Shown here: positions 494-61,457 of the stretch, in pieces | How the letters are laid out: each line of letters begins with the position of its first letter | Numbering within the stretch: position 1 is the first letter of the stretch | Assembly (NCBI GenBank): GCA_025769875.1 | Contig: JAGFNK010000194.1 | Span: 1 to 64,000 of the forward strand | Reading direction: 5' to 3' | Origin: Russula earlei | Lineage: Eukaryota > Basidiomycota > Agaricomycetes > Russulales > Russulaceae | Length of the DNA: 64,000 nt | The notes under the pieces: model-generated | The model's database searches: none | Told to the model about the DNA's origin: nothing | Seen by the model: only the letters and a program-made list of their open reading frames with translations | Program-made: the position numbers and the translations under genes

Positions 494-498
494 ATTGA

Positions 499-988
499 TG
501 TCACCGACTGGGGGCGGTGTCACTGACAAATCGTTTCACGTGCGAGACGTGCGCACTGAGTCGAGCGAGATGATAGGTTCTCGCGAGATTCGGGGATCTC
601 GGTGACAGCACAGCAAATGCTAGTGTGTACCGCAGAGGGGAAGTGCAAGGAATATGTCTTTGCATTTGAAGACCTGAAGAGTGGAAAGAGTTTCTAGTTG
701 ATTGCTTGATTCCCTGCAAGCCTACAGTCCCAAAGCTAGAATCCAGTGATATTCACAAGAGAACAAGCTTAGAGCTTGTTCTCTTCTACAGACAGGTTTA
801 TATAGACAATGTATCCTATATCAAATAGTAGACACAAGGTAACGGTGAGGCAATCGAGACTAGGACACGCTGGAAGGTGCTGGTACATGCGAGGCTGAGT
901 GAGTCATGGAACACGTGGGAATCGTGAGGTCTGTCTGGGTAGGCTTGTCCGGTTGCCAGTCCGGTCCGAAGAGCCGGTTCTTGTGACA
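499..988 (-). repeat. Gypsy-1 3' LTR
   Basis: 490-bp long terminal repeat, downstream LTR of the minus-strand element. It begins TGTCACCGAC and ends CTTGTGACA on the plus strand. A purine tract lies next to it at about 989-1003 in the sense orientation of the element, as expected for plus-strand priming. It matches the other LTR (7367-7856) without length change, and every substitution I found between them falls in a CpG. Confidence 0.96.
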
Positions 989-1007: not shown

Positions 1008-2255
1008 TTAAGCGGCATAAGGGAGGATAGTCGATTGGCAGCGATGAGTATGGAAGTGGAGTTGGTCGCGAGGAACCCGACATATTTTGTTGGTTTTGCA
1101 TCGTCGATGCAGATTCCTGCAGTGTTCAGCTACGTGCCCATGACGGTTACAAAGGACACAGATGGCAATTTTGGGGCATTCGAACGTATCGTGTCCTCCG
1201 TCGTGACACCATGCGCATTTGTCTGAAAGTCGAGGAAGGAATTGATACCATGGGTCTAGTAGGGCTTCTTTAGCATCCTTATGCTCTTGGTCAGTAAGTT
1301 GGGGCATGGTTCCGAACAGGACCCGTGGTTTGAGACGAATCTTGGTGTTAGCCCTGGCTAATTTGATTTCCGAGTCCCTTACTTCCCATACCATGTCATG
1401 GTATCTTTTGCGAGCGGTGACGAGACTGTTTGCCATCTGTCGTGTTTTCTTTATGGCGAATCGATAGCGACGCACTTCCGCTTCTAAGGATAGGTCTTGT
1501 TCGAACATAAGTGCCTCGTCTATGGCTTTAGTGTGTCTGAGACCTTCTTTGAACAAGAAGGCATCTTTCTGTGTAAGCAGGGGGCAAGGGTAAGGGTCGG
1601 CTCGAGCTCGAATAGGGATGCGGTGAGTGGGACATCTGGGACCGTAGGTGGCTAGCAAGGAGGGGAAGCCATGTGTTAGGTCGGGGAGAACAAAGCGAGG
1701 GGGAAGTGTGTCATCTTCATTGCCTGGATCTGGGATTAGTAGGTCTAGTCCAAGGTCTCCTTCTTCCCATCCTTCTCCAAGTTCTTCTAGTTCCGTGAGT
1801 TGGGTGTGATTGGTGGGCGGCTCGTAGACAGGGGGTGGAGTTCTTTCGAGGTGCGTTGGGGCAAAGTTCTCGTTGAGTAGAACGATGTCTCCAACTTGTT
1901 GGACGATGGGTGTGATAGTGCGTGGTGGAATTGGAATGGGGTCAGGTGAAGGGGAGCAGACGTGATAGGAGGGACTGCGGGTTCTGACGGGTGAGTTAAC
2001 TCCTCGGGTAGGAGATTGATTGCCAAATGCTCTCAGTATGGTGGTGAGGGAATCGTCTTCCCATAATTTGCGTGCCTGTACAATCATCGCAGCATGTTGT
2101 GCGGCTCATCGGACAAGTATTCTGGTGTTGATGGTCGCCACTGTCGAGGGGGAAGGTTCCCTAGACAGTGGCAGGTGGATAAGTGCAGGGGAATAAGGTG
2201 GAGTGGGTACGAGAGTGGCGGTGGAAGCAGTAGGAGAGTTCTGGGTGGAGGACAT
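1008..2255 (-). pseudogene. Chromovirus accessory ORF, double CCHC zinc-knuckle protein (Gypsy-1 copy)
   Basis: About 415 codons in env position: after the integrase/chromodomain and directly before the 3' LTR. The frame starts with MSSTQNSP at 2255 and is open except for one TGA near 2104; an uninterrupted 359-residue frame follows from the internal Met at 2087. It has a Pro/Ser/Thr-rich N-terminal third, an acidic patch, and a charged, probably helical middle. The C-terminus has two successive CX2CX4HX4C knuckles (CAWC...H...C and CVLC...H...C) followed by more Cys and His. No signal peptide or membrane segment is visible, so it is not a classical envelope protein. A nucleic-acid-binding, nucleocapsid-like role is an inference from the knuckles. 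The same ORF occurs in all four gypsy copies here. Confidence 0.85.
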
Positions 2256-2312
2256 GTTTGTTGTGTTTGGGGGGGTAGAGTGGTAAGGGACAATCGCTTG
2301 TAGGTGGTGCTT

Positions 2313-3944
2313 TTATATCTGAGGTCGTCCAGCCGAAGTGGAGTAATATTCTGTTAGAAGTTCTGGGGCATTAAGGTCATGATGGTCGACCCATGAGTCA
2401 TCTGATGCAGGGTATCCTTTCCAATGTACGAGATATTGAAGTTTACGTGTTCGTCCAAATCTTCTTGTGTCTAGAATCACCTCAATTTCGTATTCTTCCT
2501 CATTTTCAACAGTTGGTGGAGGTCGTGTGAATGGCGTGCCATATTCTTCTGTCTCCTTATAAGGGAGAAGTAGGTTGACATGGAAGACGTCATGTATCTT
2601 CATTGATGGCGGAAGTTGTAACTGATATGCGACTTTGGAAATTCTTTTTGTGATAGGAAATGGGCCGTATCTCTTAGGCATCAGCTTGCGTGTTCCTCAT
2701 GTTTTGAGGTTCTTTGCTTCTAGCCATACAAGGGTTCCTTCTTCCATTTCTTTGATGTCAGGTCTTAGGGGTTGTTGTTTACGTTCAAGGAGTTGTTGGG
2801 CGTCTTCTTGTCTTGCTTCTTCTAGTTGTTTTAGGCGGTTGGTGGATGAGGGTACGTTGTTGTCTTCTAAACTGATGTTAATCTGGGGTTTGAATCCCAT
2901 GAGGAGTTCGTGTGGTGATCTTTGTGATGTTTCATGTTTCCATGAGTTGTGTGCATATTCTGCCAAAGGAAGCATTTTTGCCCAGGAATGTGGGTGAGTC
3001 GTGGTCCAGGGTCTTAGGTATTGTTCTAGCCATGCATTCATCCTTTCTGTCTGTCCATTGGTTTGGGGGTGGAACATGGTAGACATGTTTTGTTTGATGC
3101 CTAGGTTTTTACATAAGGCTTTGGAGAAGTTTGATGCAAATCGAGGGTCTCTGTCGGAGATGATTCTTTTGGGGATGCCGAACCAGGGCATGAGGTGTTT
3201 CAGATACTCATGTGCGATGCCTGTTCCATCAATCGTTTTGTTGCATGGGATGAATTTTGTTGCTTTGGAGCATCCTTGGTCGACTATGGTAAGGACGCTG
3301 TCAAACCCTTCTGATTTGGGTAGGTCGGTGATAAGGTCCATTGATATGTATTGAAAGGGGCCTTGTTCAACGTGTGTGTTGAGTGGAAAAGTCATGGCTT
3401 TCTTTCTAGGTATATTGGTTTTGGATTCTTGGCATTTGGCGCAACCTTTGACATATTGTTCTACGAATTGTTGTAATCTAGGTCCTTCGTAGTGTTGTTT
3501 GACTAAATCCCAGGTGTTGGCTATTCCTGGGTGTCCTGCAAAAGGGGTGTCATGAAATTGTCTCAGAATTTCTCGTCGTTTGTCAGGTTTGTCTGGTAGG
3601 TAGGTTTTTCTTGCGAAGATTTCAGGTGGTAGTAAAGTGGTTTTTTGTTCTTCTACCCCCTTGTTAAGGTCTTTGCGATGAGAAAGTGTGTCGGCAATAG
3701 TGTGTGTGTGTCCAGGGACGTGTTCCATGGTAATATTAAAGTCTTGCATGTATTGCATCCATCTGGCTTGTCGTCCTGTTAATTTCTGTGGTTCTTTGAA
3801 GTAAGTGAGATTTTTGTGGTCTGTTCTTATTCTGACTGGTTTGTTGGCTCCTAGGAAGAATGGTCGTCCACTTTTTAATCCAAAGATCACTGCTGCTAAT
3901 TCTTTGTCATGAGCGTCGTAGTTTCTTTCCATGTCTAATAACAT
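2313..3944 (-). pseudogene. Gypsy-1 pol 3' part: RNase H, integrase, chromodomain
   Basis: Begins inside RNase H (the DAHDKELAAV and RTDHKNL blocks). It continues through an integrase zinc domain (H...H with CAKC), the catalytic core (MDLITDLP, SDRDPRFAS and an E in NGQTERMN) and the GPF/Y-like KRYGPFPI module, to a chromodomain around 2330-2500 (EVILDTRR...LQYLVHWKGYP). One in-frame TGA at about 2694-2696 separates the integrase core from the KRYGPFPI part; the same stop is shared with Gypsy-3 and Gypsy-4. The chromodomain is known in this clade to direct integration to particular chromatin. Reading frame upstream is lost in the RT-RNase H linker. Confidence 0.92.
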
Positions 3945-5619
3945 CCTAGAATAGTATGCAATTGGGTGTAAACCATCTTCATATTCTTGGGATATGACTG
4001 CTCCTATGGCGAATCCTGACGCGTCAGTGTCTAGAATGAATTGCTTTGTCCAGTCTGGAGTGCGGAGTACAGGATAGGATACACAAGTTTCTTTCAGGAT
4101 TTGAAAGGCTTGATCCTCCTTTGTCGTCCATTCCCATTCTTTGTTAAGTCGTTTCGTGGTCTTGCCTTTATGGAAAAGTTGGGTATAAAATTTCGATAAA
4201 AGTTACAAAATCCTAGGAAACTTCTGACTTCTTTTAGTGTTGATGGGGTTGGCCAGTCTTTAATTCCCTTGACTTTGACGGGGGTCCATAGTTATTTTTC
4301 CTTCTCCTATGATTACTCTGAGGTATTCTACCTTCTTCTTGTGGAATTGACACTTTTCTGGTTTAAGATAAAGATCGTGTTGTTTCAATTTAGACAGTAT
4401 GTGGTTGACTTTGAATGTGTGTTCTGTTTCATCATTTTGTGTAGCAATGATGATGTCGTCCATGTAGATTTTCAACCATCCTTGTGCAAGCTCTTCTTGA
4501 AAAATGTCGTCCATCATAGTTTGAAAGGTGGCTGGGGAATTCATTAGTCCGAAGAACATTACTGTAGGTTCGAACAGTCCGTCACTAGTCTTGAAGGCTG
4601 CTTTCCATTCGTCTCCTTCTTTGATCCGAATGTTGTTATAGCCCCATCTAACATCAAATTTAGTAAAGAGTTCTTTTCCTGCTAAAGCGTGAATAAGTTC
4701 TGGGATTAAGGGCAGTGGATATACATTGGGTATCGTCCATTTGTTCAGATTCCTATAGTCTTGTACTGGTCAAAATTTTCCGTCTTTCTTTTTTATAAGG
4801 AAGAATCCACTGGCGTATGGTGAGTTGGATCTTCTTATTCGTTTAAGTCATAGGTTTTGTTCAAGGAATTTCTCTTGCTCTTCCTTTTCCTTTGGTGAAA
4901 GGGGGTATACTCTGCAGTTGATTGTTGTCGGAGCGTCTGATTTTAAGTCAATGGCGTGATCCCATTTTCTTGGTCCAGGGAACCTTTCTGACTCTTGTTC
5001 CATGAATACTTGTCCATATTGGTGATATTGATGAGGAACTATTTCTTGCCAGGTTTTTGGTTTATCCTGTATTTGTGATTCTGCCAGTTGTTGTGCTATG
5101 GTAGTTTTACGTATTTGGGTTTGTAGCCATAGCTCATCGCCTTCTTCCCAGTCTACTAATGTCTTGATCCATGCTGGAGTTTCTTGGTCTCCTTTGAGGG
5201 TGACCCTTCCTACAATGGTTCCTCTGGACCAATTTATTTTTGGGTTAGTTGATTCTAGGAATGGATATCCTAGGATGATATCGTCTTGCCCTATGTCTGC
5301 AACCAGGAATTGATGTATATGCTTTTGTCCCAGTAGCTTCAGTTCTAGCTGGACTGTTTGGGTGACTTTTCCTAAGCGGTTAAGCGTTCCATCGACATTT
5401 TTGACATTTTTGGTTGGGATTAGTTTTTCTGGTTTGCAGGCGTAATTCCTTTGTCAATTTGGGAGATATGAAGCATTCAGTAGCCCCACTGTCTATTAGG
5501 GCTTTCTTTTCGGCTTTGTTCGATCCGATGTAAATAGTAGTCATCACTGATATTGACTTTCTTTGGGACTTGTACATGGGATCGATACCTAAAGCTTGAG
5601 CAATCGCCATAATGCTCAA
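3945..5619 (-). pseudogene. Gypsy-1 pol 5' part: protease and reverse transcriptase
   Basis: The protease (5380-5619) carries the aspartic motif ALIDSGATECF. A frameshift near 5400 is followed by the ADIGQDDIILGYPFLES flap region and the RT. RT blocks include [35 protein letters not shown] and the catalytic IYMDD near 4460. Nonsense codons at 4770-4772 and 4848-4850 are TGA where Gypsy-2 has CGA, so both are C-to-T changes at CpG. A further frameshift lies after the YMDD block near 4265. Function is lost in this copy. Confidence 0.9.
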
Positions 5620-7286
5620 GCGTCCGAAAAATCCTTTTCTTTATCCTCATCATCTCCCATCAGGGCCTTAATGAAGGCTTCTCTTTCCTCTTCCGATAGT
5701 GCCTTTGCTGCCTTTGCGAGTTTGTCGGCCATATTTTCTTCAATTACTTCCACAACGGAGGATTCGGATGTGGTGGTAGCCGTGTTTGTGGCACGTGCGC
5801 AAGTTGTTTTGCGTTTCAGCTTCGTGGGGCAGTCGCAGGCCAAGTGTCCTCGAAGAGAGCAGTAGAAACACCTTCCTTCTTCTCGGTGTTTCTGCTTTTC
5901 AGCCTCAGTGACTGCTTTGCGAGCGGCGCCTGCGCTGGTGTCCATTGCGTTTGGGTCGTGTGGTGGGAGGTGAGCACGTGGTGCAGTGGCATTATTGGTG
6001 GTGTTGCCGCGCATGCCCCAATTTGAAAGGCGGGCCCAAGGGCGGTTGGTGTTCGAGTTGGTGTTTCTGTTGTGGGTGTTAGCATGGTCTGTTAGAACCG
6101 CTTGTCGGCGCATCCAGATGCAATGTTGTTTTTGTGCCGCGCTGATCCAATCGTTGAAGGAAGTTGGATCTTCGAAATTGATGCACGCTTCAACTAGTGG
6201 CTTAGGAAGACCGCATGCGAACAGTCGCATAACGGTCGGGTCATTCGTGAAAAGTCCTGCGCGTTTTGCGAGGACTTGGAAGGCTGAAATGTAGCCGTCT
6301 AGGTTGTTATCCTTCATTTTCAACTCTCGGAGTTGATCTTGCGCGCATTCGCGTTCTGCGTAGTCGACGAATGCGTGTTTGAATTTCTGTTGCATGGCCT
6401 GCCAGGCATTGAGACCAAAGGGGAGTTCTTCAGGGTTGTCAATGATTTCTTGTAGCCATTCATCCATAGTTTTGACCCAGCCTTCGACATCCGGTCCCTC
6501 AAGGAGTGACAGGAAGTACGCACATTTCTTGATGGGGTCGCGCACAATCTTGCTGTCATGATTTAAGGTCATGAACCTATGGAACGCTGTTAGGAAGATG
6601 TGGGTGCAGGCCCTGTTGCCATTGAAGGCTTTCGGGGGAATGCCTTCAAGTTTTCTGTTGTCAGAGGAGCGTACATCACGACCATAATTGGCGTGTGTGT
6701 CATAGTCGTCGGGATCGGGGCTCGCGGGTCATCTTCCGCGTCCTCCGAAGCCTTGGAATTGACTGGGTCGGGGAAAGGCTCGTGTCGTACCGGACGACGC
6801 AAGTTGCTGGGGAACGGGTGCTTCTGGTTTGTTGTCGGCGACGTGGACTTGAGTTGTCGTGGGGGGTTCTTGTTCCATCGCTTCTGCAGGTGCTGGGGTT
6901 GAAGCTCGAGAGGAGTGTGGTACTGGTGTTCCTGAGGCAACCAGTGCATCCATGTCCAGTCCTGGAAGAGGATCAAATGTCAGTTCAAAAATCAGGCATG
7001 CGACGCGTACAGCCGCAAAGTAGTCTTCGCGCCGTTCGACTTCGAACCACACTCCATAGAGTGTTGCGAGGGCTACCTTTGCTTGTTTGTAGGGTGCAAA
7101 GAACCCAGTCCATGGAGTGGAATCTGTCCCGAGTCGTAAGAATAGAGTGTTCTCTCTGAATTGCTCTGGAACTAGAGCAATGTCGGTATCCAGGGTTATC
7201 CTGAATGGAAGTCTGAGTTTTGCCAATCCTTGTTCAGAAGACTTCCCTTGGCCCTTGTATCTCCAGTCTCTGGCCATTGAGGTCAT
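5616..7286 (-). pseudogene. Gypsy-1 gag
   Basis: The N-terminal frame runs from 7286 to about 6729. A one-base shift then continues in another frame (from about 6725, open past 6572) to 5616. The first part is a family-specific N-terminal domain ending in a Pro/Gln-rich linker and GGRGR. The second part is a retrotransposon gag capsid domain (YFLSLLEGP, AERECAQDQLRELK) followed by one CX2CX4HX4C knuckle, CFYCSLRGHLACDC. It overlaps the protease frame start by a few bases, which suggests a frameshift- or reinitiation-based gag-pol arrangement in the ancestor. In Gypsy-2 the equivalent junction is in one frame, so the shift here is probably a mutation. Confidence 0.9.
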
Positions 7287-7353: not shown

Positions 7354-7364
7354 AAGCTTGTTCT
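7354..7364 (-). promoter_or_regulatory. Gypsy-1 primer-binding site, self-complementary type
   Basis: Two bases inside the 5' LTR, the minus strand reads AGAACAAGCTT. This is the exact complement of AAGCTTGTTCT at 7638-7628 within the LTR, about 34 nt downstream of its TATATAA box and so near the expected transcript start. Fungal Tf1 primes reverse transcription with the first 11 nt of its own mRNA, and the spacing here fits that model. Gypsy-2 has the same 11-mer at 42433-42443. Confidence 0.7.
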
Positions 7365-7366
7365 AA

Positions 7367-7856
7367 TGTCACCAACTGGGGGCGGTGTCGCTGACAAATC
7401 GTTTCATGCGCGAGACGTGCGCACTGAGTCAAGCGAGATGATAGGTTCTCGCGAGATTCGGGGATCTCGGTGACAGCACAGCAAATGCTAGTGTGTACCG
7501 CGGAGGGGAAGTGCAAGGAATATGTCTTCGCATTTGAAGACCTGAAGAGTGGAAAGAGTTTCTAGTCGATTGCTTGATTCCCTGCAAGCCTACAGTCCCG
7601 AAGCTAGAATCCAGTGATATTCACAAGAGAACAAGCTTAGAGCTTGTTCTCTTCTACAGACAGGTTTATATAGACAATGTATCCTATATCAAATAGTAGA
7701 CACAAGGTAATGGTGAGGCAATCGAGACTAGGACACGCTGGAAGGTGCTGGTACATGCAAGGCTGAGTGAGTCATGGAATGCGTGGGAATCGTGAGGTCT
7801 GTCCGGGTAGGCTTGTCCGGTTGCCGGTCCGGTCCAAAGAGCCGGTTCTTGTGACA
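7367..7856 (-). repeat. Gypsy-1 5' LTR with TATA box and hairpin
   Basis: 490-bp upstream LTR of the minus-strand element. In the sense direction it has a TATATAA box at 7672-7666, then an inverted repeat (GAGAACAAGC ... GCTTGTTCTC) centred about 30 nt downstream, at the likely transcription start. It differs from 499-988 at 16 sites, all CG/TG or CG/CA alternatives. Confidence 0.96.
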
Positions 7857-14365: not shown

Positions 14366-15348
14366 AGTAGCACACTCACTCGGCGTTCAACATTGGTGAC
14401 AATGCCTCACGGGAGTGCGAGTTAGCCGGCATCACTAGATCCTCTCCGCCGGACACGCGGTGTAGTGGATGTGGCTGAGGACGTCGAGCAAGCTTCAAGC
14501 CCAGAATGGAAATAATCACAGTATAAAGCCTATGCGTTAACGATTGAAACTACAACACGAGGGCAGAAGCGGAATGCTCCAGGTGCGTTATGTGTAACTC
14601 AGTCAGTAGACGTTCTGCCTCGATCGTAGGGCATCTCGCTTCGTTCGAGGACAATGTAGATTAGACCACCCATTCACAGCGCACGCGCCGTACGCGCACA
14701 CCTTGGTTCTCGCTCGCACATCGATAGCTGGCCCGGCGTGAGACTTTGAGAGCGCAAGTCCATCTGCGATCCCCGTTCGAGCTCGCAGACCCTGCAAGTT
14801 AGGGTCCGGAAGCGCGGCCAGACGTGGAACTTTTGAAAGAGCTGGTTCCTTCTGAGCAAACTTTGGATGCAAACCTGCGCGCCGGTTCGGGAATCGTGGT
14901 TCGCTCTGACGTAGTGTCCATCGGCAATCTTCACGCTCTGCACTACACGTACATGAGGTCGTGGCATCTCATATGGCTGTGGATGAGATCACTGCGTTTA
15001 TGTGCTAAACCGCTGTTGGAGTCATGGCGATCACGCCCATGAACCGTCCGAAGAGCAAAGGTAGGCACCCACAACGAAAGCCTTCGCGTCGCGGACGGTT
15101 CTAGCAGGGAGACGGTGAAAAGGAACAAAATCGTTTCATCCCGATCTCTACAACAGTAAAAAGGACCCTCTCATTTTATATCTCGTAAACGATACATCGA
15201 CACAGACTGGCGACACATGCGGGAGTAGTGGAAACAAACAGATACGAGTGGACGAGGAAGTGAAAGAGATTGAGAAGCGCCATTTTCAGGCCAACCAAAT
15301 CCAGGTGACATCAAGTAGTGCAAACGACGACGCAAGACTAACAATCGT
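14366..15348. other. Intergenic, no gene seen
   Basis: Upstream of the four-TM gene and downstream of eEF1B-gamma, both on the minus strand. It would hold the promoter of the first and the 3' UTR of the second. Frames here are short and overlap on both strands. Confidence 0.45.
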
Positions 15349-16984
15349 TTACTTGAACTATCAGAAGACGTTAGCTCAAGTGGAGGATATCAAAGACAGG
15401 GCGACGTACGTTCTTCCCATCTACCCACTTCTTGTCTCCGATTTCGAGGTCCCATGCAAGCGCAGCTTCGAAGAAGGCCTTCTGCTCCGCATTGGTAAGG
15501 TCAATGCGCTCGTACGTGTAACTTTCCCAATCAGGCGCGACATCGACGACGGGTTTGATGTCCAGCCCACGTGCAATAAGCGCGCCGCTGATGATCGAGT
15601 TGTTCCGCGTGCCGAGCACGCCAATCGAGCCGAACAGATACTTGCGCGAAGCCTCGAGGCGGTTGAAAAAGCCACCGATCTGATTCGAAGACATGTACGT
15701 CTGCGTGAGCTCCTCGTTGTACTTGAAGTCCACACGCCAGAGCGAGAAGCCCTCCTTGTCGAAGCTGCGTAGCATGATGCCATCAGCAACGCAGGATCGA
15801 AAACAGCGTACGAGACGAACTTCTGGTAGAACCACTCGAGCGCCCCACCGCTTCCGCGCGTCTCTTTGTTGGAGTACGCGCGTTTCCAATCCTCAAGGTT
15901 GAACGTCGATTTGGGTAGGAGGTCAAGGGGGTTCTTCTCCTTCGGCGCCTCCTGGGTCGGCTTGTCGTCGTCGTCATCGTCGTCGACAGCTTCCTCCTTC
16001 GGTTTTTTCTCGGCTTTTGGTGCAGGGGGAGCAGGCGCCTTCTCCTTCTTCTCCTTCGGGGGTGGCGTATACTGCAACGCCTTCTCGGCGAACGTAGTGG
16101 ATCCGAATATAGAGGCAAGATTCGGTTGGTTCACTATGGTCTCAAAGTGGCGGAGGACGTTCGGAAGTTTCGCACGGAGCGCTGCGTCGACGGTGGTGGA
16201 GAAGGCGGATTGGAGCTCGGAGGCAAGCGTAATGTCTGCAAGAGTGATGCGTTCCGTCGCGAGGTAAGTACGGGTAACAAGGTGTTTCTCGACGGTGATA
16301 AGAGCGGAAGCCAGGCGGTCCTGAAACACGGTGTGGATCTGGAAGAGTGTCTGAGTAGAACAGAAGAAGAGAGAGGTGATGACGCACGGGCTTGTTGTAG
16401 GGGGTGATGGTACCCTTGACAAGATGAAGGATGAGGGTATTATAACGAGAAATATCAGCGTCCACAAACGAAACCCATTGGTCGACTAAAGCGGCCTCCT
16501 TAGCTCCGCGACCAATGAGGGTAGAGCTGGGGGCTAGGGACGCGACTTGATATCAAAATGGTCAGCAGAGTCCGTTGAAAAACACAAATCCAATGATCCC
16601 GGCGTCGTTAACTGTAGCATGTACAAAGTGACAGCACTTGGGAGAACAGTCCGATGGACACGCCCCTGAACGTGTCGTCGAAGACAACGATCTTCGCGCC
16701 ATTGCATCTGGTGCTGTGATGAGACAATATGACTCACTGTAGCGGCCGATGGCGCTGGCTTCAAAGAGGGAGAATCCATCTTTACTGGCGAGGGTTGGGG
16801 TCTTGACAATCCCCGCGGTGCCTTCCTTGACCTCGACAGAAAGTCCAGCAAAGGCCGCGATGGCACTGATCTGTCGAGTGAGGGTGTTGTCTTGGTTCGT
16901 GGAGCCCCATACTATAAGCGATACGGAAGAACGTACGCGCTTTTTCTCAACCTCTGAGGTTGTATATAAGGTTCCAGCAGACAT
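15349..16984 (-). CDS. EEF1G: Translation elongation factor eEF1B subunit gamma
   Basis: Five exons (16984-16738, 16545-16388, 16338-15821, 15764-15410, 15357-15349) give 428 residues with every junction in frame. Introns are 192, 49, 56 and 52 bp. The first 80 residues are a GST-like N-domain, followed by a GST C-domain to about residue 220. A Lys/Pro/Asp-rich linker (KEKKEKAP, a run of seven D) covers about 226-268, and the conserved EF1-gamma domain runs from NPLDLLPKSTFNLEDWKR to the C-terminal ending GKNFK, which needs the 9-nt last exon. Donor 3 is chosen as GTTCGT because only that gives WFYQNFDKEG. The protein scaffolds the eEF1B complex that recycles GDP to GTP on eEF1A. The copy is intact and almost certainly a housekeeping gene. 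Confidence 0.95.
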
Positions 16985-33739: not shown

Positions 33740-34231
33740 TGTCACCGACTGGGGGCGGTGTCACTGACAAATCATTTCACGCGCGAGATGTGCGCACTGA
33801 GTCGAGTAAGATACTAAGTTCTTACGAAGATCGGGGATCTTGGTGACGACACAGCAAGGGCTAGTGTGTACTGCGGAGAGGAAATATGATAGGAAAGTCT
33901 TCGCGTTCGAAGACTTTCAAGACAGAGAGGATTTCTGGGTCGTTTGCTTGATTCTCTGCAAGCCTACAGTCCGAAGCTAGAATCCAGTGATATTTCACAA
34001 GAGAACAAGCTTAGGGCTTGTTCTCTGTTACTGACAGGTTTATATAGACAACTGTGTCCTATATCAAATAGCAGACATGAGGTAGTAGCGAGACGATCGA
34101 GAATGGAACACGCTGGAAGGTAGTGGTACAGGCGAGGCTAAGTGAGTCATACGAACGTGCGGGAATCGTGAGGCTGTCTGGGTAGGCTTGTCCGGTTGCC
34201 GGTTCGGTCCGGGGGACCGGTATCTGTGACA
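33740..34231 (-). repeat. Gypsy-2 3' LTR
   Basis: 492 bp, TGTCACCGAC to ATCTGTGACA. Adjacent on the internal side is the purine tract AACAAGGGGGTGA (sense orientation). It differs from 42446-42937 in blocks such as 33802-33825 and 33885-33935, including non-CpG changes. Confidence 0.95.
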
Positions 34232-34249: not shown

Positions 34250-35498
34250 CTAAGCAACGTAAGGGATAACAGTAGAACGACAGTGGTGGGTGTGGAAGTG
34301 GATTTGGTCGCGAGGAACTCGACATATCTTCTCGGGTCTGCATCGTCGGTGAGGACTTCTGCAGTAGTCGGCTATGTGTCCCTGACGATTGCAGAGGATA
34401 CAGACGGCGATTTTGGAACATTCAAAGGTGTCATGCCCTCTGTCTTTGCACCACGCGCACCTATCAGAGAGTCGGGGGGGGAATTGGTACCATGGATCAA
34501 GGAGGGCTTGCTTGGCATCCTGATGCTCTTGTTCGGTGAGTTGAGGCATGGTGCCGAATAGTACTCGTGGTTCGAGGCGTGCTTTGGCGTTAGCCTTAGC
34601 CAACTTAACTTCCGAGTCCCTTACTTCCCACATCATGTCGTGGTATCTTTCTCGGGTGGTGACGAGGGAGTTTGCCATTTGTCGTGTTTTCTTTATGGCA
34701 AAACGATAGCGACGTACTTCGGCCTCTAGTGACAGGTCTTGTTTGAACCTGAGTGCTTCGTCTATGGCTTTGGTATGTCTGAGACCTTCTTTGAACAAGA
34801 AGGCATCTTTTTGTGTGAGGAGGGGACGAGGATAGGGATCAGCTCGAGCTTGAATGGGAATGCGGTGAGTAGGACATCCAGGACCGTAGGTGGCCAAGAG
34901 GGAAGGAAAGCCGTGTGTGATATCAGGGAGAACAAAGCGAGGGGGAAGTGTGTCTTCTTCATTTCCTGGATCTGGGATTAGTAAGTCTAGTCCTAGATCT
35001 CCTTCTTCCCATCCTTCTCCAAGTTCTTCCAGTTCTGAGCGTTGTGTATGGTTGGTGGTTGGTTTGTAGACAGGAGGTGGTGTTCTTTCGCGGTTTATTG
35101 GAGCAAAGTTCTCGTCAAGCAAGATTACGTTTTCGACTTGCTGGATGATGGGTGTGGTGATGCGTGGAGGAATTGGGATAGGGTCAGGTGAGGGAGTGCG
35201 GACGTGATAAGATGGGCTACGAGTTCTGATAGGTGAATTGGTCCCTAGAGTGGGAGATCGATTGCCGAAGGCACGTAGTATCGTGGTAAGGGAGTTGTCC
35301 TCCCATAGCTCGCGTGCTTGGACAATCATGGCGGCGTGTTGTGCAGCACATTCGGATGAGTAGTCTGGTGTTAATAGTGGCTGCTGTCGAGGGGGATGGT
35401 CCTCGAGATAGTGGTAAATGGATGAGAGTGGGGGAGTAAGGTGGAGTGGGTACTAGGGTGGTGGAGGAAGCGGTGGGAGAGTTCTGAGTGGAAGACAT
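34250..35498 (-). pseudogene. Chromovirus accessory ORF, double CCHC (Gypsy-2 copy)
   Basis: The frame begins MSSTQNSPTA at 35498, shifts by one base near 35335, and then runs uninterrupted for 359 codons from the internal Met at 35329 to 34250. The C-terminal knuckles CAWCKDRGHDTFEC and CILCNRQGHIADYC are both canonical CX2CX4HX4C, followed by a Cys/His-rich end (HFHTHHC). The middle has a charged, heptad-like stretch (EALRFKQDLSLEAEVRRYR and onward). This is the best-preserved long copy of the ORF. Protein-level similarity to the Gypsy-1 copy is high along the whole length, which argues for past selection on the reading frame. Confidence 0.85.
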
Positions 35499-35547
35499 GT
35501 TTGTTGGGGGTAAAGCGGTAGGGAGTAGTCGTCTATGGGTGGTGTTT

Positions 35548-37258
35548 TTATATCTGGGGTCGTCCAGCCGAAGCGGAGTAGTATTCTTTTAGAAGTTCTG
35601 GGGCGTTGAGGTCATGATGGTCGACCCATGAGTCATCTGATGCCGGGTATCCTTTCCAGTGTACGAGGTATTGAATCTTACGTGTCCGTCCAAATCTTCT
35701 TGTGTCTAGAATTGCTTCGATTTCGTATTCTTCCTCGTTTTCAATGGTTGGTGGAGGTCGTGTAAACGGCGTGCCATATTCCTCCGTCTCCTTATAAGGG
35801 AGAAGTAGGTTGACGTGAAAGACGTCATGTATCTTCATCGATGGCAGAAGTTGTAATTGATACGCAACTTTGGAAATTCTTTTTGTGATAGGAAATGGAC
35901 CGTATCTTTTGGGCATCAGTTTGCGTGTTCCTCAGTGTTTTGAGGTTCTTCGCTTCTAGCCATACAAGAGTTCCTTCTTCCATTTCTTTGATGTCGGGTT
36001 TTAGGGGTTGTTGTTTACGTTCGAGGAGTTGTTGGGCATCCTGTCTTGCTTCTTCTAGTTGTTTTAGGCGATTGGTGGATGAGGGTACGTTGTTGTCTTC
36101 TAGACTGATGTCGATCTGGGGTTTGAATCCCATGAGGAGTTCGTGTGGTGATCTTCGTGATGTTTCATGTTTCCATGAGTTATGTGCATATTCTGCTAAA
36201 GGGAGCATTTTTGCCCAGGAATGTGGATGAGTCGTGGTCCAGGGTCTTAGGTATTGTTCTAGCCATGCGTTCATCCGTTCTGTCTGTCCATCGGTTTGGG
36301 GGTGGAACGCGGTGGACATGTTTTGTTTGATGCCTAGATTTTTACATAAGGCCTTTGAGAAGTTTGATGCGAATCGAGGGTCTCTGTCGGAGATGATTCT
36401 TTTGGGAACGCCAAACCAGGGTACGAGGTGTTTCAAGTACTCATGTGCAACACCTGTTCCATCGATCGTTTTGTTACAGGGGATAAACTTTGTTGCTTTA
36501 GAGCACCCTTGATCGACTATGGTGAGGACACTGTCAAATCCTTCTGATTTTGGTAGGTCAGTAATGAGGTCCATCGATACATATTGAAAGGGGCCTTGTT
36601 CAACGTGTGTGTCGAGTGGGAAAGTCGTGGCCTTCTTTCTGGGTATATTGGTTTTGGACTCTTGGCATTTGGCGCAACCTTTGACGTATTGTTCTACTGA
36701 ATTGTCGTAGTCTAGGTCCTTCGTAATGTTGTTTGACTAAGTCCCAGGTATTAGCTATTCCTGGGTGTCCTGCGAAGGGAGTGTCGTGGAATTGTCTTAG
36801 GATTTCTCGTCGTTTGTCAGGTTTGTCGGGTAGGTAGGTCTTTTTCGCGAATATTTCGGGTGGTAGTAAAGTGGTTTTTTGTTCTTCTACCCCCTTGTTA
36901 AGGTCTTTGCGACGAGAGAGTGTGTTGGTGATAGTGTGTGTATGTCCAGGGACGTGTTCCAAGGTGATATTAAAGTCTTGCATATATTGCATCCATCTGG
37001 CTTGTCGTCCTGTTAATTTTGTGGTTCTTTAAAGTACGTGAGATTTTTGTGGTCTGTTCTTATTCTGACTGGTTTGTCGGCTCCTAAGAAGAATGGTCCT
37101 CCGCTTTTTAATCCAAAAATCACTGCTGCTAGTTCTTTATCGTGAGCGTCATAGTTTCTTTCTGCATCTAATAGTGTTCTGGAATAGTAGGCAATTGGGT
37201 GAAAACCATCTTCATATTCTTGGGATATAACTGCCCCTACAGGCGAATCCTGATGCAT
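35548..37258 (-). pseudogene. Gypsy-2 RNase H, integrase and chromodomain
   Basis: RNase H (37258-37013) has DAHDKELAAVIFGLK and RTDHKNLTYF. Integrase covers about 36992-35930 with GHPGIANTWDL, MDLITDLP, SDRDPRFAS and TDGQTERMN. The chromodomain frame (35916-35548) starts KRYGPFPITKR and carries YLVHWKGYPASDDSW. One-base shifts lie near 37016, 36705 and 35935. Confidence 0.9.
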
Positions 37259-38830: not shown

Positions 38831-39668
38831 TGGATCTGTATTTAAGGCCCGAGCGATCGCCGTCGCACTCAGGCGTCCGAAAAACCCTGTTCTTCGTTCT
38901 CATCGTTCTCCTCTGAAAGCATCTTGATGAAGGTTTCCTTGTTTTCCTTGGATAGGGCCTTCGCGGCATTGACGACTTTAATGGCCGCGTTCTCTTCAAT
39001 AATTTCCACCACGGGGGATTCGGATGTGGTGACGGTGTTGGCGGCGCGTACGCGAGTTGTCTCGCGTTTCGGTTTCGTGGGGCAGTCGCGGGCCAAGTGT
39101 CCTCGAAGGGAGCAATGGAAGCACCTTCCTTCTTCTCTGTGTTTCTGTTTTTCGGCTTCGGTGACTGCCTTGCGAGCGGCGCCCGCGGTGGTGTCCATCG
39201 TGTTCGGGTCACGTGGTGGGAGTCGCGGTCGTGCAGGTGTGGTGTTGCCTTGGTTGTTTCCACGGTTGGCCCATGCCGAGTTGACTAATCGTCCCCAGGG
39301 TCTGTTGTTTTGTGGTTGATTGGGGTTGCGTCCGCGTGTACTGGAATGGTCGGACAAGATCGCGCGTTTGCGCATCCAGACCCTGTGGTGTTTCTGTGCT
39401 GCTGCAACCCAATCTACAAAGGAGGTGGGGTCTTCGAGATCGAGGCACGATTCGACCAAAGATCGTGGGAGTCCCCACGCAAATAACCTCATGACTGTCA
39501 GTTCGTCGACGTCGAGTCCCACACGTCTGGCCAGTAATTGGAATTCGGATATGTAGTCATCAAGCAGGCCATCCTTCATTTTTAGTTCTTTGAGTCGGTC
39601 TTGGGCCTTCTCGCGTTCCGCGTAGTCGGTGAACGCGCGTCGGAATTGCTGTCGCATGGCCTCCCACG

Positions 39669-40497
39669 TGTCAAGACACATACTGCTGATCCGTGTGGAC
39701 TCAGGAGCAGGTGGGCAAGGGTCGGAACAGATGATATGCAGCGAAGGCGGCGTTGAACAAGAGGACGAGCCAAATGACGAGGAGGTACCAGATGGGGACT
39801 GGTAGGTGTTGCAAGAGACAAAGGCGAAGGCTGGAGGCCAGTGTAGCAAGGGGACTTTAAACAAGGCGGTCGTTGAAGAGTACCTTGGAAGCGAGGGGAA
39901 TCTTTAGACTGAGCGGTCGCAGGGGAGTACCCAGGGAGATGAGAGTATCACAAATGGACAGTCTGACGACTGCCATACTTCATTGGGGCTTATATACAGT
40001 GTACAGGGTCGATTACAAAGACCTGGGACTATTCTAGACTCTTTGGTACCATCCAATAGGACTACAGAGGCATAAACTTGCTTGTGTCAAGTTTCAGGCT
40101 TACTGAGCGCATTACTGATCATTGTGGAGCGATGACATCATTATGATGTCACTGTGGAGTGCTTAGTGAGCCTATGAGGTCACTGTGGAGTTGCTCAGTC
40201 AGCTATGATGTCATTGGAGCCTGGATGACATCAGATGATTTATGCAACAGTTTCTAAGAGTTTGTGCCGCTGTTTCGGGTCCTTGGTGGCTGGGTGGCCA
40301 TGTGGCTGCCACGCGATGATTACCCGATTAGGAAACGGGTGCCTGGTCGTGTTATAGTGCCTTTGCAATAGCGATATCTTGCACTGCAAGGGGAATAGCC
40401 CAGAAAACGGAAGGGAGTTGGTAATGCAAAATGAGAGAGGTCTCTCTTGAGTGAAATAGGACCATCTACGGTCAGGGCCTGGCCTTGGTTCGTAACA
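39669..40497 (-). repeat. Solo LTR of an 829-bp family
   Basis: The plus strand starts TGTCAAGACAC and ends GTTCGTAACA; target duplication CCACG at 39664-39668 and 40498-40502. In the sense (minus) direction it has TATATAAGCC, then a GGCAGTC...GACTGTCC inverted repeat, echoing the layout of the 960-bp family. The two families share short blocks there, so they may be related. Confidence 0.93.
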
Positions 40498-42432: not shown

Positions 42433-42443
42433 AAGCTTGTTCT
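42433..42443 (-). promoter_or_regulatory. Gypsy-2 primer-binding site, self-complementary type
   Basis: The same 11-mer as in Gypsy-1 (AGAACAAGCTT on the minus strand), two bases from the LTR. It is complementary to AAGCTTGTTCT downstream of the TATA box inside the LTR. Conservation of both partners in two elements supports pairing. Confidence 0.68.
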
Positions 42444-42445
42444 AA

Positions 42446-42937
42446 TGTCACCGACTGGGGGCGGTGTCGCTGACAAATCGTTTCACGCGTGAGACGTACG
42501 CACTGAGTCGAGCGAGACGACAAGTTCTCGCAAAGGTCGGGGATCTCGGTGACAACACAGCAAAGGCTAGTGTGTACCGCGGAGTGGAAAGACAATAAAT
42601 AAGTCTTCGCGTTTGAAGACTTAGAGAGTGGAAGGAGTTTCTGAGTCGTTTGCTTGATTCCCTGCAAGCCTACAGTCCCGAAGCTAGAATCCAGTGATAT
42701 TCACAAGAGAACAAGCTTAGAGCTTGTTCTCTGTTACTGACAGGTTTATATAGACAACTGTCCTATATATCAAATAGCAGACATGAGGTTGTAGCGAGAC
42801 GATCGAGAATGGAACACGCTGGAAGGTGGTGGTACAGGTGAGGCTAAGTGAGTCATACGAACGCGCGGGAATCGTGAGGCTGTCCGGGTAGGCTTGTCCG
42901 GTTGCCGGTTCGGTCCGAGGGACCGGTATCTGTGACA
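42446..42937 (-). repeat. Gypsy-2 5' LTR
   Basis: 492 bp, TGTCACCGAC to ATCTGTGACA. Its outer edge joins the protease of Gypsy-3 directly (KALIDSGATECF in plus-strand reading). Confidence 0.95.
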
Positions 42938-51247: not shown

Positions 51248-51785
51248 TAACATTAGTCTAGAAGACAACAATGTGCCCTCATCCATCGGTCGTCTGAAAC
51301 AATTAGAAGAGGCAAGACAAGATGCACAACAGCTTCTAGAACGTAAACAACAACCCCTAAGACCTGATATTGTGGAAATGAAAGAAGGAACCCTCGTATG
51401 GTTAGAGGCAAAAAACCTCAAAACATGAGGAAACACGCAAGTTGATGCCCAAAAGATACGGCCCCTTTCCTATTGTAAAAAAAATCTCCAAAGTCACCTA
51501 TCAATTACAACTCCCGCCATCAATCTACTCCTTCCTTATACAGAAATGGAGGAATATGCCATGCCGTTCACTTGCCCCCCTCTGATCATCAAAAATGAAG
51601 AAGAATACAAAATTGAAGCAATTCTAGACATTAGAAGATTCGGATGAACACATAAACTCCAATACCTTGTACATTGGAAGGGCTACCCTGCATCAGATGA
51701 CTCCTGGGTCAACCACCATGACCTCAACGCCCCAGAACTTCTAAAAAAATACTATTCTGCTTCGACTGGACAACTCAAAATATAA
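51248..51785 (+). pseudogene. Gypsy-3 integrase C-terminus and chromodomain
   Basis: Continues NISLEDNNVPSSIGRLKQL to TLVWLEAKNLKT, a TGA, then KRYGPFPIV and the chromodomain (YLVHWKGYPASDDSWV near 51663-51717). Small deletions and TGA codons, for example near 51645, interrupt the frame. Confidence 0.85.
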
Positions 51786-51840
51786 AAACCCCCATCCACG
51801 AATGATTATCCCCCACCACTCTACCCTCAAACACTACAAC

Positions 51841-54060
51841 ATGTCTTCCCCACAAAACTCTCCTACTGCCTCCACTGCCACCCTCATACCCACTCCTCCT
51901 TACTCTCCCACACTCATCTATCTGCCACTATCCAGAGAACCATCCCCTTTGACAGTGGCAACCATTAACACCAGGTCGCTCATTTGAGATGCTGCACAAC
52001 ATGCAGTGATGATCATACAAGCACATGAACTGTGGGAGAACGACTCTCTCACCACCATACTACGTGCCTTCGGCAATTGCTCCCCCACACAAGGAACCAA
52101 CTCCCCCATCAGAACTTGCAGCCCCTCCTATCATGTTCATTCCCCATCACCTGATCCCATTCCCATCCCTCCACGCACGACTACTCCTATCATTGAGTAA
52201 GTAGAAAATGTCGTCCTTCTCAATGAAAACTTTGCCCTGATAGACCTCGAAAGAACTCCACCTCCTGTCTATGACCTGCCCACTAACAACCAACTCATGG
52301 AGCTGGAAGAACTCAGAGAAGGTTGGGAAGAGGGAGATTTAGGGTTAGACTTACTCATCCCAGACCCAGGAAACGAAGATGACACACTTCTCCCTCACTT
52401 TGTCCTCCCCAACCTCACACACAGCTTCCCTTCCCTACTAGCCACTTATGGTCCCAGATGCCCCACTCACTGCATACCCATTCGAGCATGAGCTGACCCT
52501 TACCCCTGCCCCCTTTTTACACAAAAAGACACCTTCCTGTTCAAAGAAGGTCTTAAACACACCACAGCAGTAAATGAGGCACCCAGGTTTGAACAAGACC
52601 TATCCTTAGAAGCTGAAGTACATCACTACCGATTCGCCATCAAAAAAGTATGACAGATGGCAAATGATCTCGTCACTGCTTGAGAAAGGTACCACTGTCA
52701 TGATCCATTCTCCGGAGAGGGCCCTTGAAGGACCCTTCCTCATAGGAGGAAACCCAGCCTCTATGGTGTCACCCCTGTTCACACGAGCAAAAGGGGTGAG
52801 TAGAGGTGTCCACAATATCGCGCGCGCATTGTTGCGCGAGCGATTCTCGGCACAATCGACATACAGCAAGCCCCACTTAAAGGCAACCCTTCTAACAGCA
52901 AAGGACAGTATTAGGGCCTTCCTAAGGACCCTTTGGAACGACCCTAGGAGCTCTACAGTAGGCACTAACCTAGTATCAAAGGCCCTACAACACGTTATTA
53001 GACCAACTCTAATAACTATAGAACGAACTATAAGGCAATACTAAGGACCTTAATAGAAGTATTAGGGTCGACTCTAAGGACCCTAATAGAACTATATAAG
53101 GGCCTTATAAGATAACACTGTTCCCTGACCAAACTACAAGTCCTCAAATGACCGGCCCTAAACTAACTAACAGGAAATGAATCAGGTGCTCACACGTGCA
53201 CTAAAGCAGTGAACACGTGGACAATGGAAGCTCTTACTCATCAAGAGAAGCCTTCTTACTCAGCAGCTTACTGAGCATGATGGAGCATGCTCAGTAAGCA
53301 TCCTCCAACTTCTTACTCATCACTCTATTGTGCTTGATAACAAGGTTATGACTTGTTCCCTATTTAGCAGTTCTCTTGTAGTATATAAGTGCCCAATAAA
53401 GTAGCGGACAGTCCTCAGACTGTCCATTTGTTTACGACACTCTCTATCTCTGGGATACTCCTTTAAGGACCATCCCCTTGTGACTATCCTGGCCTCTTCC
53501 CTGCGTGACTGCTCTACTCTCACAGTAACAGTGCCTCTCTGGTACCTGTTACTACTCTGGACTCTACTCTTTGCCCACACGGTCTTGGACGTCTATCGAC
53601 TCGTCTTCGAGCTTACCCCTCGCTCTTGAACTGGATAGTTCAACAGTGAGTCTTGACAACCACAACCTGGTCTGGGAAGTAAGAGACTCAGAGGTTAGAC
53701 TGGCCAGGGCTAATGCTAAAGCTCATCTCAAACCACAAATCTTGTTCAGGTCCATGCCTCAACTCACTGACCAAGAACACAAAGATGCTAAGGAACTCAT
53801 CATGGACCCATAGTATCAGTTCTCCCCCCAGATCTCTGACAAATGTGCCTGGTGTCATGATGGAGGATACAACACTTTCAAATGTCCCAAAACTGCCATC
53901 TATGTCCTCTGCAATCATCATGGACACACAGCTGACCACTGTAGAAGCCCACATTGATGATGCAAGATCAACAAGATGTGTCAAGTCCCTCATGACCAGC
54001 TACACTTCCACACCCATTGTTGTCACTCCACTATTATCCCCTATGTCGCTTAGACACTAA
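51841..54060 (+). pseudogene. Chromovirus accessory ORF, double CCHC (Gypsy-3 copy), split by an LTR
   Basis: Starts MSSPQNSPTASTATL at 51841 and follows the Gypsy-2 protein. It is split at ERYH/NLVWEVRDSEV by the solo LTR 52696-53658 and ends with both knuckles (CAWCHDGGYNTFKC; the second has CNHHGHTADHC) and PYVA near 54050. Stops are scattered (for example 51985, 52198, 52489, 52651 and 53811). Confidence 0.85.
52696..53658 (+). repeat. Solo LTR of the 960-bp family, copy C
   Basis: 963 bp in sense orientation, TGTCATGATCC to AGTCTTGACA, target duplication ACCAC at 52691-52695 and 53659-53663. Contains the GTATATAAG box near 53382 and the GGACAGTCCTCAGACTGTCC hairpin about 30 nt further on. 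Confidence 0.95.
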
Positions 54061-59539: not shown

Positions 59540-59706
59540 TCCTCCTCTCCCACTCTGCCAAAAGACTTCAGGATGTTAGGATTCTTATGTTCTCTTCCAC
59601 TTACCTATGCTTTGGTGACTCATCCCTGCTTACTGCCACTTACTCATCTGTGCTTACTCTTGCTTAGTGATTGATTACTCATTGCTTACCATTTGATGAC
59701 AGATAC

Positions 59707-60216: not shown

Positions 60217-61392
60217 CTAAGTGATGTAAGGGATGATGGTGGAGTGGCAGTGATGGGTGTGGAAGTGGAGTTGGTCATGGGGGACTTGACACATTCTGTC
60301 GGTCTTGCATCGTTGATGTGGATTTCTGCAGTGGTCAGCTGTGTGTCCATGGTGATTGCAGAGGACGCAGATGGCAATCTTGGGGCATTCAAAAGTGTTG
60401 TGTTCCCCGTCATAGCACCAAGCGCATTTGTCAGAGAGTCGAGGGGAGAACTGATACCATGGGTCCATTAAGGCCTCTTTGGCATCCTTGTGTTCTTGAT
60501 CGGTGAGTTGGGGCATGGTCCCAAATAAGACTCATGGCTCAAGGCAGGCTTTGGCGTTGGCTTTGGCTAGCTTGACTTCCAAATCTCTTACTTCCCAAAC
60601 CATGTTGTGGTATCTTTCTTGAGCAGTGACGAGGCTGTTTGCTATCTGTTGTACCTTTTTTATGGCGAATCGATAGCGGTGTACTTCGGCTTCTAAAGAC
60701 AGGTCCTGTTTGAACCTGAGTGCCTCGTCTATTGCTGTGGTGTGTCTAAGGCCGTCTTTGAACAAGAAGGCGTCCTTTTGTGTGAGAAGGGGGCGAGGGT
60801 AGGGGTTGGCTCGTGCTTGAATGGGTATGCGGTGAGTGGGGCATCCAGGGCCATAAGTGGCTAGCAGAGAGGGGAAGCTGTGTATGAGATCAGGAAGGAC
60901 AAAGCGAGGGGGAAGCATATCATCTTTGTTGCCTGGGTCTGGGATAAGTATATCTAGTCCTAGGTCTCCTTCTTCCCATCTTTCATGGTTTGTTGGGGCA
61001 AAGTTTTCATTGAGCAGGATGATGTTTTCAGCCTGTTCGATGATGGGAGTAGTTACACGTGAAGGGATTGGAATAGGGTCAGGTGATGGGGAGCGAACAT
61101 GATAGGAAGGACTATGGGTTCTGATGGGGGAATTGGTTCCTTGTGTGGGGGATCAATTGCCAAAGGCATGTAGTATGGTGGTGAGAGAGTTGTCTTCCCA
61201 TAGTTTGTGTGCTTGTATGATCATTGCTGCGTGTTGTGCGGCACATCGAATGAGTAACCTGGTGTTAATGGTTGCCACCGTTGAAGGGGATGGTTCTCCG
61301 GACAGCAGTAGATGGATGAGCATAGGAGAGTAAGGAGGAGTAGGTACGAGAGTAGTGGTGGAGGTAGCAGGGGAGTTCTGTGTAGAGGACAT
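60217..61392 (-). pseudogene. Chromovirus accessory ORF, double CCHC (Gypsy-4 copy)
   Basis: Starts MSSTQNSPATSTTTL at 61392 and passes without a stop through RCAAQHAAMIIQAHKLWED. This shows that the N-terminal extension before the internal Met is part of the same ancestral frame. After a stop near 61153 and a deletion near 60985 it continues LPPRFVLPDLIHSFPSLLATYGPG (60918 onward) and ends with CAWCYDGEHNTFEC and CVLCNHHGHTADHC (60516-60217). A TGA near 60530 splits the last part. Confidence 0.85.
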
Positions 61393-61457
61393 ATTGTAGT
61401 ATGGAGGTGGAGCGGTGGGGAATGATCATTTTGTAGGTGGTGTCTTTATACTTGGGG

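What the first reader, a model, noticed from the sequence alone, without database searches (positions are those of the whole stretch)
1008..2255. Conserved extra ORF with two CCHC zinc knuckles in env position of a chromovirus
All four gypsy elements (1008-2255, 34250-35498, 51841-54060, 60217-61392) carry an ORF of about 415 codons between the chromodomain and the 3' LTR. It has a Pro/Ser-rich N-terminus, a charged helical middle and two canonical CX2CX4HX4C motifs, in addition to the one in gag. Chromoviruses normally end with the chromodomain. A second nucleocapsid-like protein, perhaps for RNA packaging, primer annealing in self-priming, or silencing resistance, would be an undescribed feature of this lineage. 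Its persistence in four copies suggests it was functional.
Basis: partly seen in the sequence, partly recalled or inferred. Interest (0 to 1): 0.82.

Follow-up and report, generated by a model that had tools for sequence, protein, structure and literature searches.

The report
Third zinc-knuckle gene in fungal retrotransposons
A family of mobile elements in what appears to be a fungal genome carries a real, selectively maintained third gene for a zinc-knuckle protein of unknown fold, apparently with its own start signal, where such elements usually have nothing; it looks like an accessory gene for the element's own life cycle.

Summary
The ORF is real. Each of four Ty3/gypsy chromovirus copies in the window carries it between chromodomain and 3' LTR, though each window copy is damaged. 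The whole genome (66.6 Mb, unnamed, taken as fungal) gives 114 matches in a capped search, many open. It has its own ATG; its frame relative to pol is random (9/9/10). It is under strong purifying selection (dN/dS 0.06-0.10; gag 0.08, integrase+chromodomain 0.05-0.09; wrong frames 1.4-2.1). Distant relatives, mostly 27-42% identical, exist among unnamed public proteins; four carry the pol end upstream. It ends in two CCHC knuckles plus a conserved third Cys/His motif. It is not Env-like, shares little but the knuckle with Gag, and matched no family or solved fold. New here: the pol stop codon sits inside a [T/C]ATAAAA-type box about 60 nt before the ORF3 ATG (38 of 40 fetched copies), suggesting an internal promoter for a separate mRNA. 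The element also looks self-priming (Tf1-type). Best reading: an accessory nucleic-acid-binding protein made from its own transcript. Neither transcript nor function is shown. A 2010 survey already drew an 'add. ORF' of unknown function in some fungal chromoviruses.

The parts
1008..2255 (-). ORF3 of element E1 (own ATG at 2255; TGA in frame just before the core)
1008..2087 (-). ORF3 core of E1, 359 codons open
1176..1217 (-). E1 zinc knuckle 1 (CX2CX4HX4C)
1119..1160 (-). E1 zinc knuckle 2 (CX2CX4HX4C)
1038..1109 (-). E1 third Cys/His motif (H-x2-C-x5-C-x-V-x2-D-[HQ]-..-C)
2311..2317 (-). E1 TATA-like box TATAAAA overlapping the pol stop codon TAA (2313-2315)
2316..2669 (-). E1 integrase C-terminal SH3 (Tf2-1 type) and chromodomain, end of pol
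2697..3944 (-). E1 RNase H / integrase part of pol
498..988 (-). E1 3' LTR (491 nt; 96.7% identical to 5' LTR)
7366..7856 (-). E1 5' LTR; TATATAA 7666-7672, predicted RNA start and self-primer 11-mer 7628-7638
7354..7364 (-). E1 primer binding site, complementary to the LTR 11-mer (self-priming)
5616..6572 (-). E1 gag fragment (Retrotrans_gag above cut-off; its CCHC only below cut-off)
34250..35498 (-). ORF3 of element E2 (own ATG 35498; frame change before the core)
34361..34459 (-). E2 two zinc knuckles (34418-34459, 34361-34402)
34280..34351 (-). E2 third Cys/His motif
35546..35552 (-). E2 TATA-like box at pol stop
33740..34231 (-). E2 3' LTR (90.1% identical to 5' LTR 42446-42937)
42446..42937 (-). 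E2 5' LTR; PBS 42433-42443 next to it
38869..39864 (-). E2 gag part (Retrotrans_gag above cut-off)
51841..54060 (+). ORF3 of element E3, several stops, split by a ~964-nt solo-LTR-like insertion
51781..51787 (+). E3 TATA-like box at pol stop
60217..61392 (-). ORF3 of element E4, stops and a short deletion
61444..61450 (-). E4 TATA-like box (TATAAAG) at pol stop

Best explanation
ORF3 is a genuine third gene of a lineage of self-priming fungal Ty3/gypsy chromoviruses. Shown here: own conserved ATG, strong purifying selection, fixed place between chromodomain and 3' LTR, distant relatives, a C-terminal cluster of two CCHC knuckles plus a third Cys/His motif. Inferred: it is transcribed as a separate short mRNA from an internal TATA promoter whose box overlaps the pol stop codon, ending at the 3' LTR polyadenylation site. 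Its product is a soluble accessory protein: disordered Pro/Ser-rich N-terminus, small beta domain, long helix that may oligomerise, zinc cluster that binds the element's RNA or cDNA. It acts in trans on the element's own replication (RNA chaperone/packaging, or regulation of the element), much as retroviral accessory proteins do.
For: 114 matches in the genome, only 113 of 614 candidates scored; dN/dS 0.077 within subfamily A, 0.060 within B, 0.095 between, near gag 0.084 and int+chromo 0.051/0.089/0.075, against 1.4-2.1 in the shifted frames. Frame relative to pol 9/9/10 over 28 copies, ATG context with C at -1 in 31 of 33: not a pol extension. [TC]ATAAA[AG] in 39 of 40 fetched copies, 38 at 54-66 nt before the ATG, against 5.5% in shuffled 25-nt pieces, and in 4 of 4 window copies. 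Last pol codon: information 1.0 and 1.08 bits at positions 1-2 but 1.84 at position 3, the reverse of the rest of the pol stretch (1.78, 1.88, 1.34). The LTR's own TATATAA begins 34 nt before the self-primer 11-mer; the same spacing puts the ORF3 start about 20-32 nt before its ATG, and none of 40 copies has an ATG in the last 37 nt. 15 of 40 copies have no AG in the 50 nt before the ATG, against a fixed splice acceptor there. Four distant relatives carry the pol end upstream. Two copies of another chromovirus-like family here end at what by eye is the chromodomain, with no ORF3 match behind.
Against: No transcript, protein or binding data. TATA-like boxes occur by chance in A-rich DNA and the copies are related: 13 of 58 wobble columns and 11 of 52 other linker columns are as conserved as the box. 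L013 lacks the box and L019 has it only at 40 nt (mutated in place). Reinitiation after pol, or splicing to an acceptor inside pol (two YAGs conserved in 42 and 41 of 42 rows), is not excluded. No solved fold matched, so nucleic-acid binding rests on the zinc motifs alone.
Confidence: 0.58

Rival explanations
1. ORF3 is real and selected but is translated from a spliced LTR transcript or by reinitiation after pol, as retroviral env and bdelloid ORF3s are from spliced messages; the TATA-like box is incidental. (Concerns expression only, so it can be true together with rivals on function.)
For: Short distance pol stop to ATG, 37-71 nt in the 28 copies counted and 52-64 in most of them; two YAG trinucleotides conserved inside the chromodomain code; bdelloid LTR element ORF3s are described as typically expressed from spliced messages (PMC5408684, passages).
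Against: No AG in the 50 nt before the ATG in 15 of 40 copies; random frame relative to pol; inverted conservation of the last pol codon.
Confidence: 0.27
2. ORF3 is a second structural Gag/nucleocapsid derived by duplication of this element's gag.
For: Two CCHC knuckles in addition to the one of gag; weak sequence matches to retroviral Gag/nucleocapsid over the knuckle region; retroviral Gag proteins top the non-significant list of the viral fold search (best E 0.28).
Against: hhalign of ORF3 and gag profiles gives probability 1-4%, over the knuckle or a 53-column stretch ending in it; no capsid-like hit.
Confidence: 0.08
3. ORF3 is an anti-silencing or transcription-regulating factor that acts on host chromatin or on the LTR, like Grande gene23 or foamy virus Tas in position and own promoter.
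For: Own promoter-like box; zinc cluster; [quoted passage not shown]
Against: No DNA-binding family found; Grande gene23 is antisense; no data on localisation.
Confidence: 0.3
4. It is a degenerate env gene.
For: Position only.
Against: No hydrophobic stretch (maximum 19-residue Kyte-Doolittle mean 0.89 and 0.65 in the two copies tested); zinc knuckles.
Confidence: 0.01
5. It is a captured host gene, or a chance ORF kept by recent copying.
For: No annotated family; only one public relative with an organism name (Russula earlei).
Against: dS near 1 within subfamily A with dN/dS 0.077; relatives at about 30% identity with the pol end upstream. Stand-alone copies were not searched for systematically.
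Confidence: 0.03

Closest known systems
Fungal chromoviruses with 'add. ORF' (PMC2864245, Novikova et al. 2010, Fig. 3 legend)
   Same: Chromodomain Gypsy elements of fungi with an additional ORF of unknown function.
   Different: The figure and supplement were not available here; position, sequence and zinc motifs of that ORF are unknown to me, so identity cannot be judged.
Sense additional ORFs (aORF-3S, env-like) of plant LTR retrotransposons (PMC7264820)
   Same: Sense ORF between pol and 3' LTR.
   Different: Some plant ones have transmembrane domains or are spliced; this one has no hydrophobic segment and carries zinc knuckles.
Maize Grande gene23 (PMC7264820; primary paper not read)
   Different: Antisense to gag-pol; no knuckles mentioned in the passages seen.
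Foamy virus internal promoter and tas/bel-2 (PMC7828637, figure legend)
   Same: Internal promoter, and accessory ORFs near the 3' LTR.
   Different: Retrovirus with env; works alike at most, no kinship tested.
Tf1/Tj1 self-priming elements of fission yeasts (PMC4600332)
   Same: PBS complementary to an LTR segment taken as the mRNA 5' end.
   Different: The legend for Tj1 lists Gag, PR, RT and IN and no further gene.
Retroviral nucleocapsid CCHC knuckles (PDB 6t61, 2bl6, 1aaf)
   Same: CX2CX4HX4C pairs.
   Different: Sequence matches weak (E 0.005 at best) and confined to the knuckle region.

Membership tests
Ty3/gypsy chromovirus | RNase H-integrase order with a chromodomain at the pol end | tested here: met
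   RT_RNaseH 6.1e-16, Integrase_H2C2 2e-17; SH3_Tf2-1 2.9e-14 and Chromo 7.2e-11
Ty3/gypsy chromovirus | LTRs TG..CA, 5-bp target duplication, PPT | tested here: met
   E1 491-nt LTRs, TSD TCAAT, AACAAGGAGG before the 3' LTR
Self-priming (Tf1-type) element | PBS complementary to the presumed RNA 5' end inside the LTR | tested here: met
   11-nt match in E1 and E2, 34 nt after the start of TATATAA; the RNA end itself is inferred
Self-priming (Tf1-type) element | RNA cleaved to free the primer | not testable with these tools
   needs RNA
Retroviral Env | Signal peptide and transmembrane segment | tested here: not met
   maximum KD19 0.89 and 0.65 in two copies
Gag / nucleocapsid | CCHC knuckles | tested here: met
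   two in E1 and E2; of 26 relatives, 8 hold two, 2 hold one, 16 (most of them incomplete or chimeric models) hold none
Gag / nucleocapsid | Capsid domain or profile homology to Gag | tested here: inconclusive
   hhalign probability 1-4%, little beyond the knuckle; no Pfam gag hit
Sense additional ORF (aORF-3S) | Conserved sense ORF between pol and 3' LTR | tested here: met
Accessory gene with internal promoter | Promoter sequence at the right distance | tested here: inconclusive
   box in 39 of 40 copies, 38 in place; conservation pattern suggestive only
Accessory gene with internal promoter | Separate transcript | not testable with these tools
   no RNA data

The most novel reading that the evidence does not exclude
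A widespread, undescribed family of accessory proteins of fungal self-priming chromoviruses, expressed from an internal RNA polymerase II promoter built into the pol stop codon (TATAAAA containing the TAA), giving these 'gag-pol' retrotransposons a separately controlled third gene as complex retroviruses have.
Probability: 0.5. Interest if true: 0.7.

Novelty: new variant of a known kind. Interest (0 to 1): 0.55.

Why it matters
LTR retrotransposons of fungi are usually treated as gag-pol only. A conserved third protein under selection as strong as gag means these elements gain from more than gag and pol in their hosts, and an internal promoter would let the protein be made apart from the genome RNA. 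It also gives a marker family to find such elements, whose ORF3 relatives in the databases are so far hypothetical or unnamed proteins.

Tried and rejected

Limits of counts: the 40 fetched copies were picked from the list mainly for open frames, so they do not estimate the intact share; 34 of 42 (32 of 40 fetched, and 2 of the window) had an uninterrupted core and entered the dN/dS (28 A, 6 B; L041 has a foreign C-terminus and was kept), 27 of the 40 were open from their own ATG. Int+chromo used 17 of these copies (B-B only 3 pairs), gag 7 of the 20 loci. Of 101 integrase places scored (of 2925 candidates) 55 had a listed ORF3 place within 3 kb downstream; two of the other 46 were fetched and both carry ORF3 in broken form, the other 44 were not looked at. 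dS near or above 1 is close to saturation, so A-B ratios are rough. The frame control was run for A-A and A-B pairs only. Related copies are not independent in any of the counts.

Papers: PMC2864245, PMC3248453, PMC11963269, PMC5408684, PMC7264820, PMC4600332, PMC7828637: passages only; others: search listings. Tf1 without a third gene is recalled. That this ORF family is not in print rests on seven searches (two searches sought analogues) of an open-access library that lacks most subscription papers; Repbase was not available.

Full report
Observation. The window belongs to contig C194 of an unnamed 66.6-Mb genome. Four Ty3/gypsy elements lie in it. E1 (minus strand) has LTRs at 498-988 and 7366-7856 (491 nt, 96.7% identical), target duplication TCAAT, and gag, RNase H, integrase and chromodomain parts. 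Behind the chromodomain follows ORF3, 1008-2255, whose stop lies 19 nt before the 3' LTR with the purine tract between. E2, E3 and E4 carry the same frame, but each window copy of ORF3 is damaged.

It is a gene. The core (359 aa) of E1 gave 114 matches in the genome, with only 113 of 614 candidates scored. I fetched 40 copies, chosen mainly for open frames. 27 of 40 are open from a conserved ATG and 415-418 codons long. In 28 copies the frame relative to the pol stop is 0, 1, 2 in 9, 9, 10 cases, so ORF3 is not an extension of pol. Pairwise NG86 over 34 open cores gives dN/dS 0.077 within subfamily A (378 pairs), 0.060 within B (15) and 0.095 between (168); the other two forward frames give 1.4-2.1 (A-A and A-B pairs). 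Integrase plus chromodomain gives 0.051, 0.089 (3 pairs only) and 0.075 over 17 copies, gag 0.084 over 7 copies. ORF3 is thus constrained about as gag is. Its synonymous divergence is about twice that of integrase plus chromodomain in the same copies (0.97 against 0.52 for A-A), correlated at r = 0.80 over 17 copies; I cannot explain the difference.

It is not confined to this genome. A first search of 5.8 billion proteins found one relative, in Russula earlei; profile searches then found five and 23 proteins, 26 distinct. 25 of these 26 are unnamed or 'hypothetical' proteins from JGI, ENA and NCBI sources whose organisms are not shown; identity to the window ORF is 27-42% for 24 of the 25 aligned with it and 16% for P0026 (P0005 not in that alignment, 32%). 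Four (P0013, P0022, P0025, P0026) carry upstream residues matching the end of this element's pol: P0013 has 65% identity to the chromodomain region (E 6e-25), and all four match the +1 frame over the pol end (E 3e-7 to 0.006). So other, distant elements keep ORF3 in the same place. Two copies of a second, abundant integrase family of the same genome (L075, L076) end after what by eye is a chromodomain, with no ORF3 match behind it.

The protein. N-terminal Pro/Ser-rich stretch, a short conserved helical motif, 'TPSPDPIPIPPR', a small beta domain, a 47-residue helix, then two CX2CX4HX4C knuckles and a third motif H-x2-C-x5-C-x-V-x2-D-[HQ]-..-C. By pattern, of 26 relatives 8 hold two knuckles, 2 hold one and 16 hold none; 7 hold the third motif; most of the others end before it, P0001 is chimeric there, and P0002 has a shifted version. 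No hydrophobic segment in the two copies tested. No Pfam or NCBIfam family above cut-off, no fold match. Profile comparison with the element's own Gag aligns little beyond the knuckle. PDB sequence matches are weak; the better ones are nucleocapsid knuckles, the rest unrelated.

How it may be expressed. The linker between pol and ORF3 is variable, but the pol stop lies in a box [T/C]ATAAA[A/G]: 39 of 40 fetched copies, 38 of them 54-66 nt before the ATG, L019 with a match at 40 nt only and L013 without; all four window copies have it. Shuffled 25-nt pieces have it in 5.5% of cases, although copies are related and not independent. In the last pol codon, positions 1 and 2 are unusually variable (1.0, 1.08 bits; rest of the stretch 1.78, 1.88) while position 3 is unusually fixed (1.84; mean wobble 1.34), as expected if the DNA motif and not the residue is kept; but 13 of 58 wobble columns reach that value, and 11 of 52 other linker columns are as fixed as the two A after the stop. 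Nine of 26 relatives contain MYKR(P/L), four of them anchored to the pol end and five at the very start of the predicted protein; this reads TAY AAR, which fits a TATAAA box, though TAC is possible and their DNA was not seen. In the LTR, TATATAA begins 34 nt before the 11-mer AAGCTTGTTCT, which is complementary to the PBS AGAACAAGCTT behind the 5' LTR in E1 and E2. As in Tf1 and Tj1 (PMC4600332, passages) this 11-mer should be the RNA 5' end, so the LTR calibrates the TATA-to-start distance. With it, ORF3 RNA would begin 20-32 nt before its ATG, and no copy of 40 has an ATG in the last 37 nt. A splice acceptor just before the ATG is unlikely, since 15 of 40 copies have no AG in the 50 nt before it; acceptors inside pol remain possible.

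Interpretation. I take ORF3 to be an accessory nucleic-acid-binding protein expressed apart from Gag-Pol. That it is a real, selected gene is close to certain (above 0.95); the internal promoter I put near 0.6; a role on the element's own RNA or cDNA near 0.55, regulation or anti-silencing near 0.3. The rivals on expression and on function overlap, so their odds need not sum to one. Since other self-priming elements seem to do without such a gene (Tj1 as listed in a legend of PMC4600332; Tf1 recalled), it is not needed for self-priming as such.

Prior knowledge. Additional ORFs in LTR retrotransposons are a known kind (PMC7264820, PMC11963269, PMC5408684, passages), Grande gene23 having its own promoter. 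For fungi, PMC2864245 marks an 'add. ORF' of unknown function in Fig. 3 (legend; figure not held). The passages found in PMC3248453 mention no such gene. Hence: new variant of a known kind, with a new protein family and a testable expression mechanism.

Noticed in passing
52695-53658, 62421-63382, 31570-32532, parts at 40675-41636 and 59074-59541: A ~960-nt repeat TGTCATGA...CTTGACA; three copies are flanked by 5-bp duplications (ACCAC in E3, GTAAG in E4; read by eye). It looks like solo LTRs of another family that broke E3's ORF3 and E4's pol.
   Followed up: partly
ORF3 against pol in 17 fetched copies: ORF3 has about twice the synonymous divergence of integrase+chromodomain in the same copies; cause unknown.
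   Followed up: partly
genome matches listed: By hand count about 147 of the in-frame stops listed are TGA and 8 are TAA or TAG, as expected from C-to-T change at CGA codons.
   Followed up: no
55950-58622: Plus-strand ORFs that look like a Helitron helicase (recalled resemblance, not tested).
   Followed up: no
15248-16467: Host gene resembling translation elongation factor 1 gamma with introns (recalled resemblance, not tested).
   Followed up: no
L075, L076: A second, abundant integrase family, many places with identical scores and open frames up to 1275 aa; the two copies read end at a chromodomain-like stretch without ORF3.
   Followed up: partly
P0001 (Russula earlei): ORF3 N-terminal half joined to an unrelated duplicated domain; probably a chimeric gene model.
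   Followed up: no
L027, L028: Two copies in which pol reads through into ORF3 (open frames of 709 and 618 codons).
   Followed up: partly
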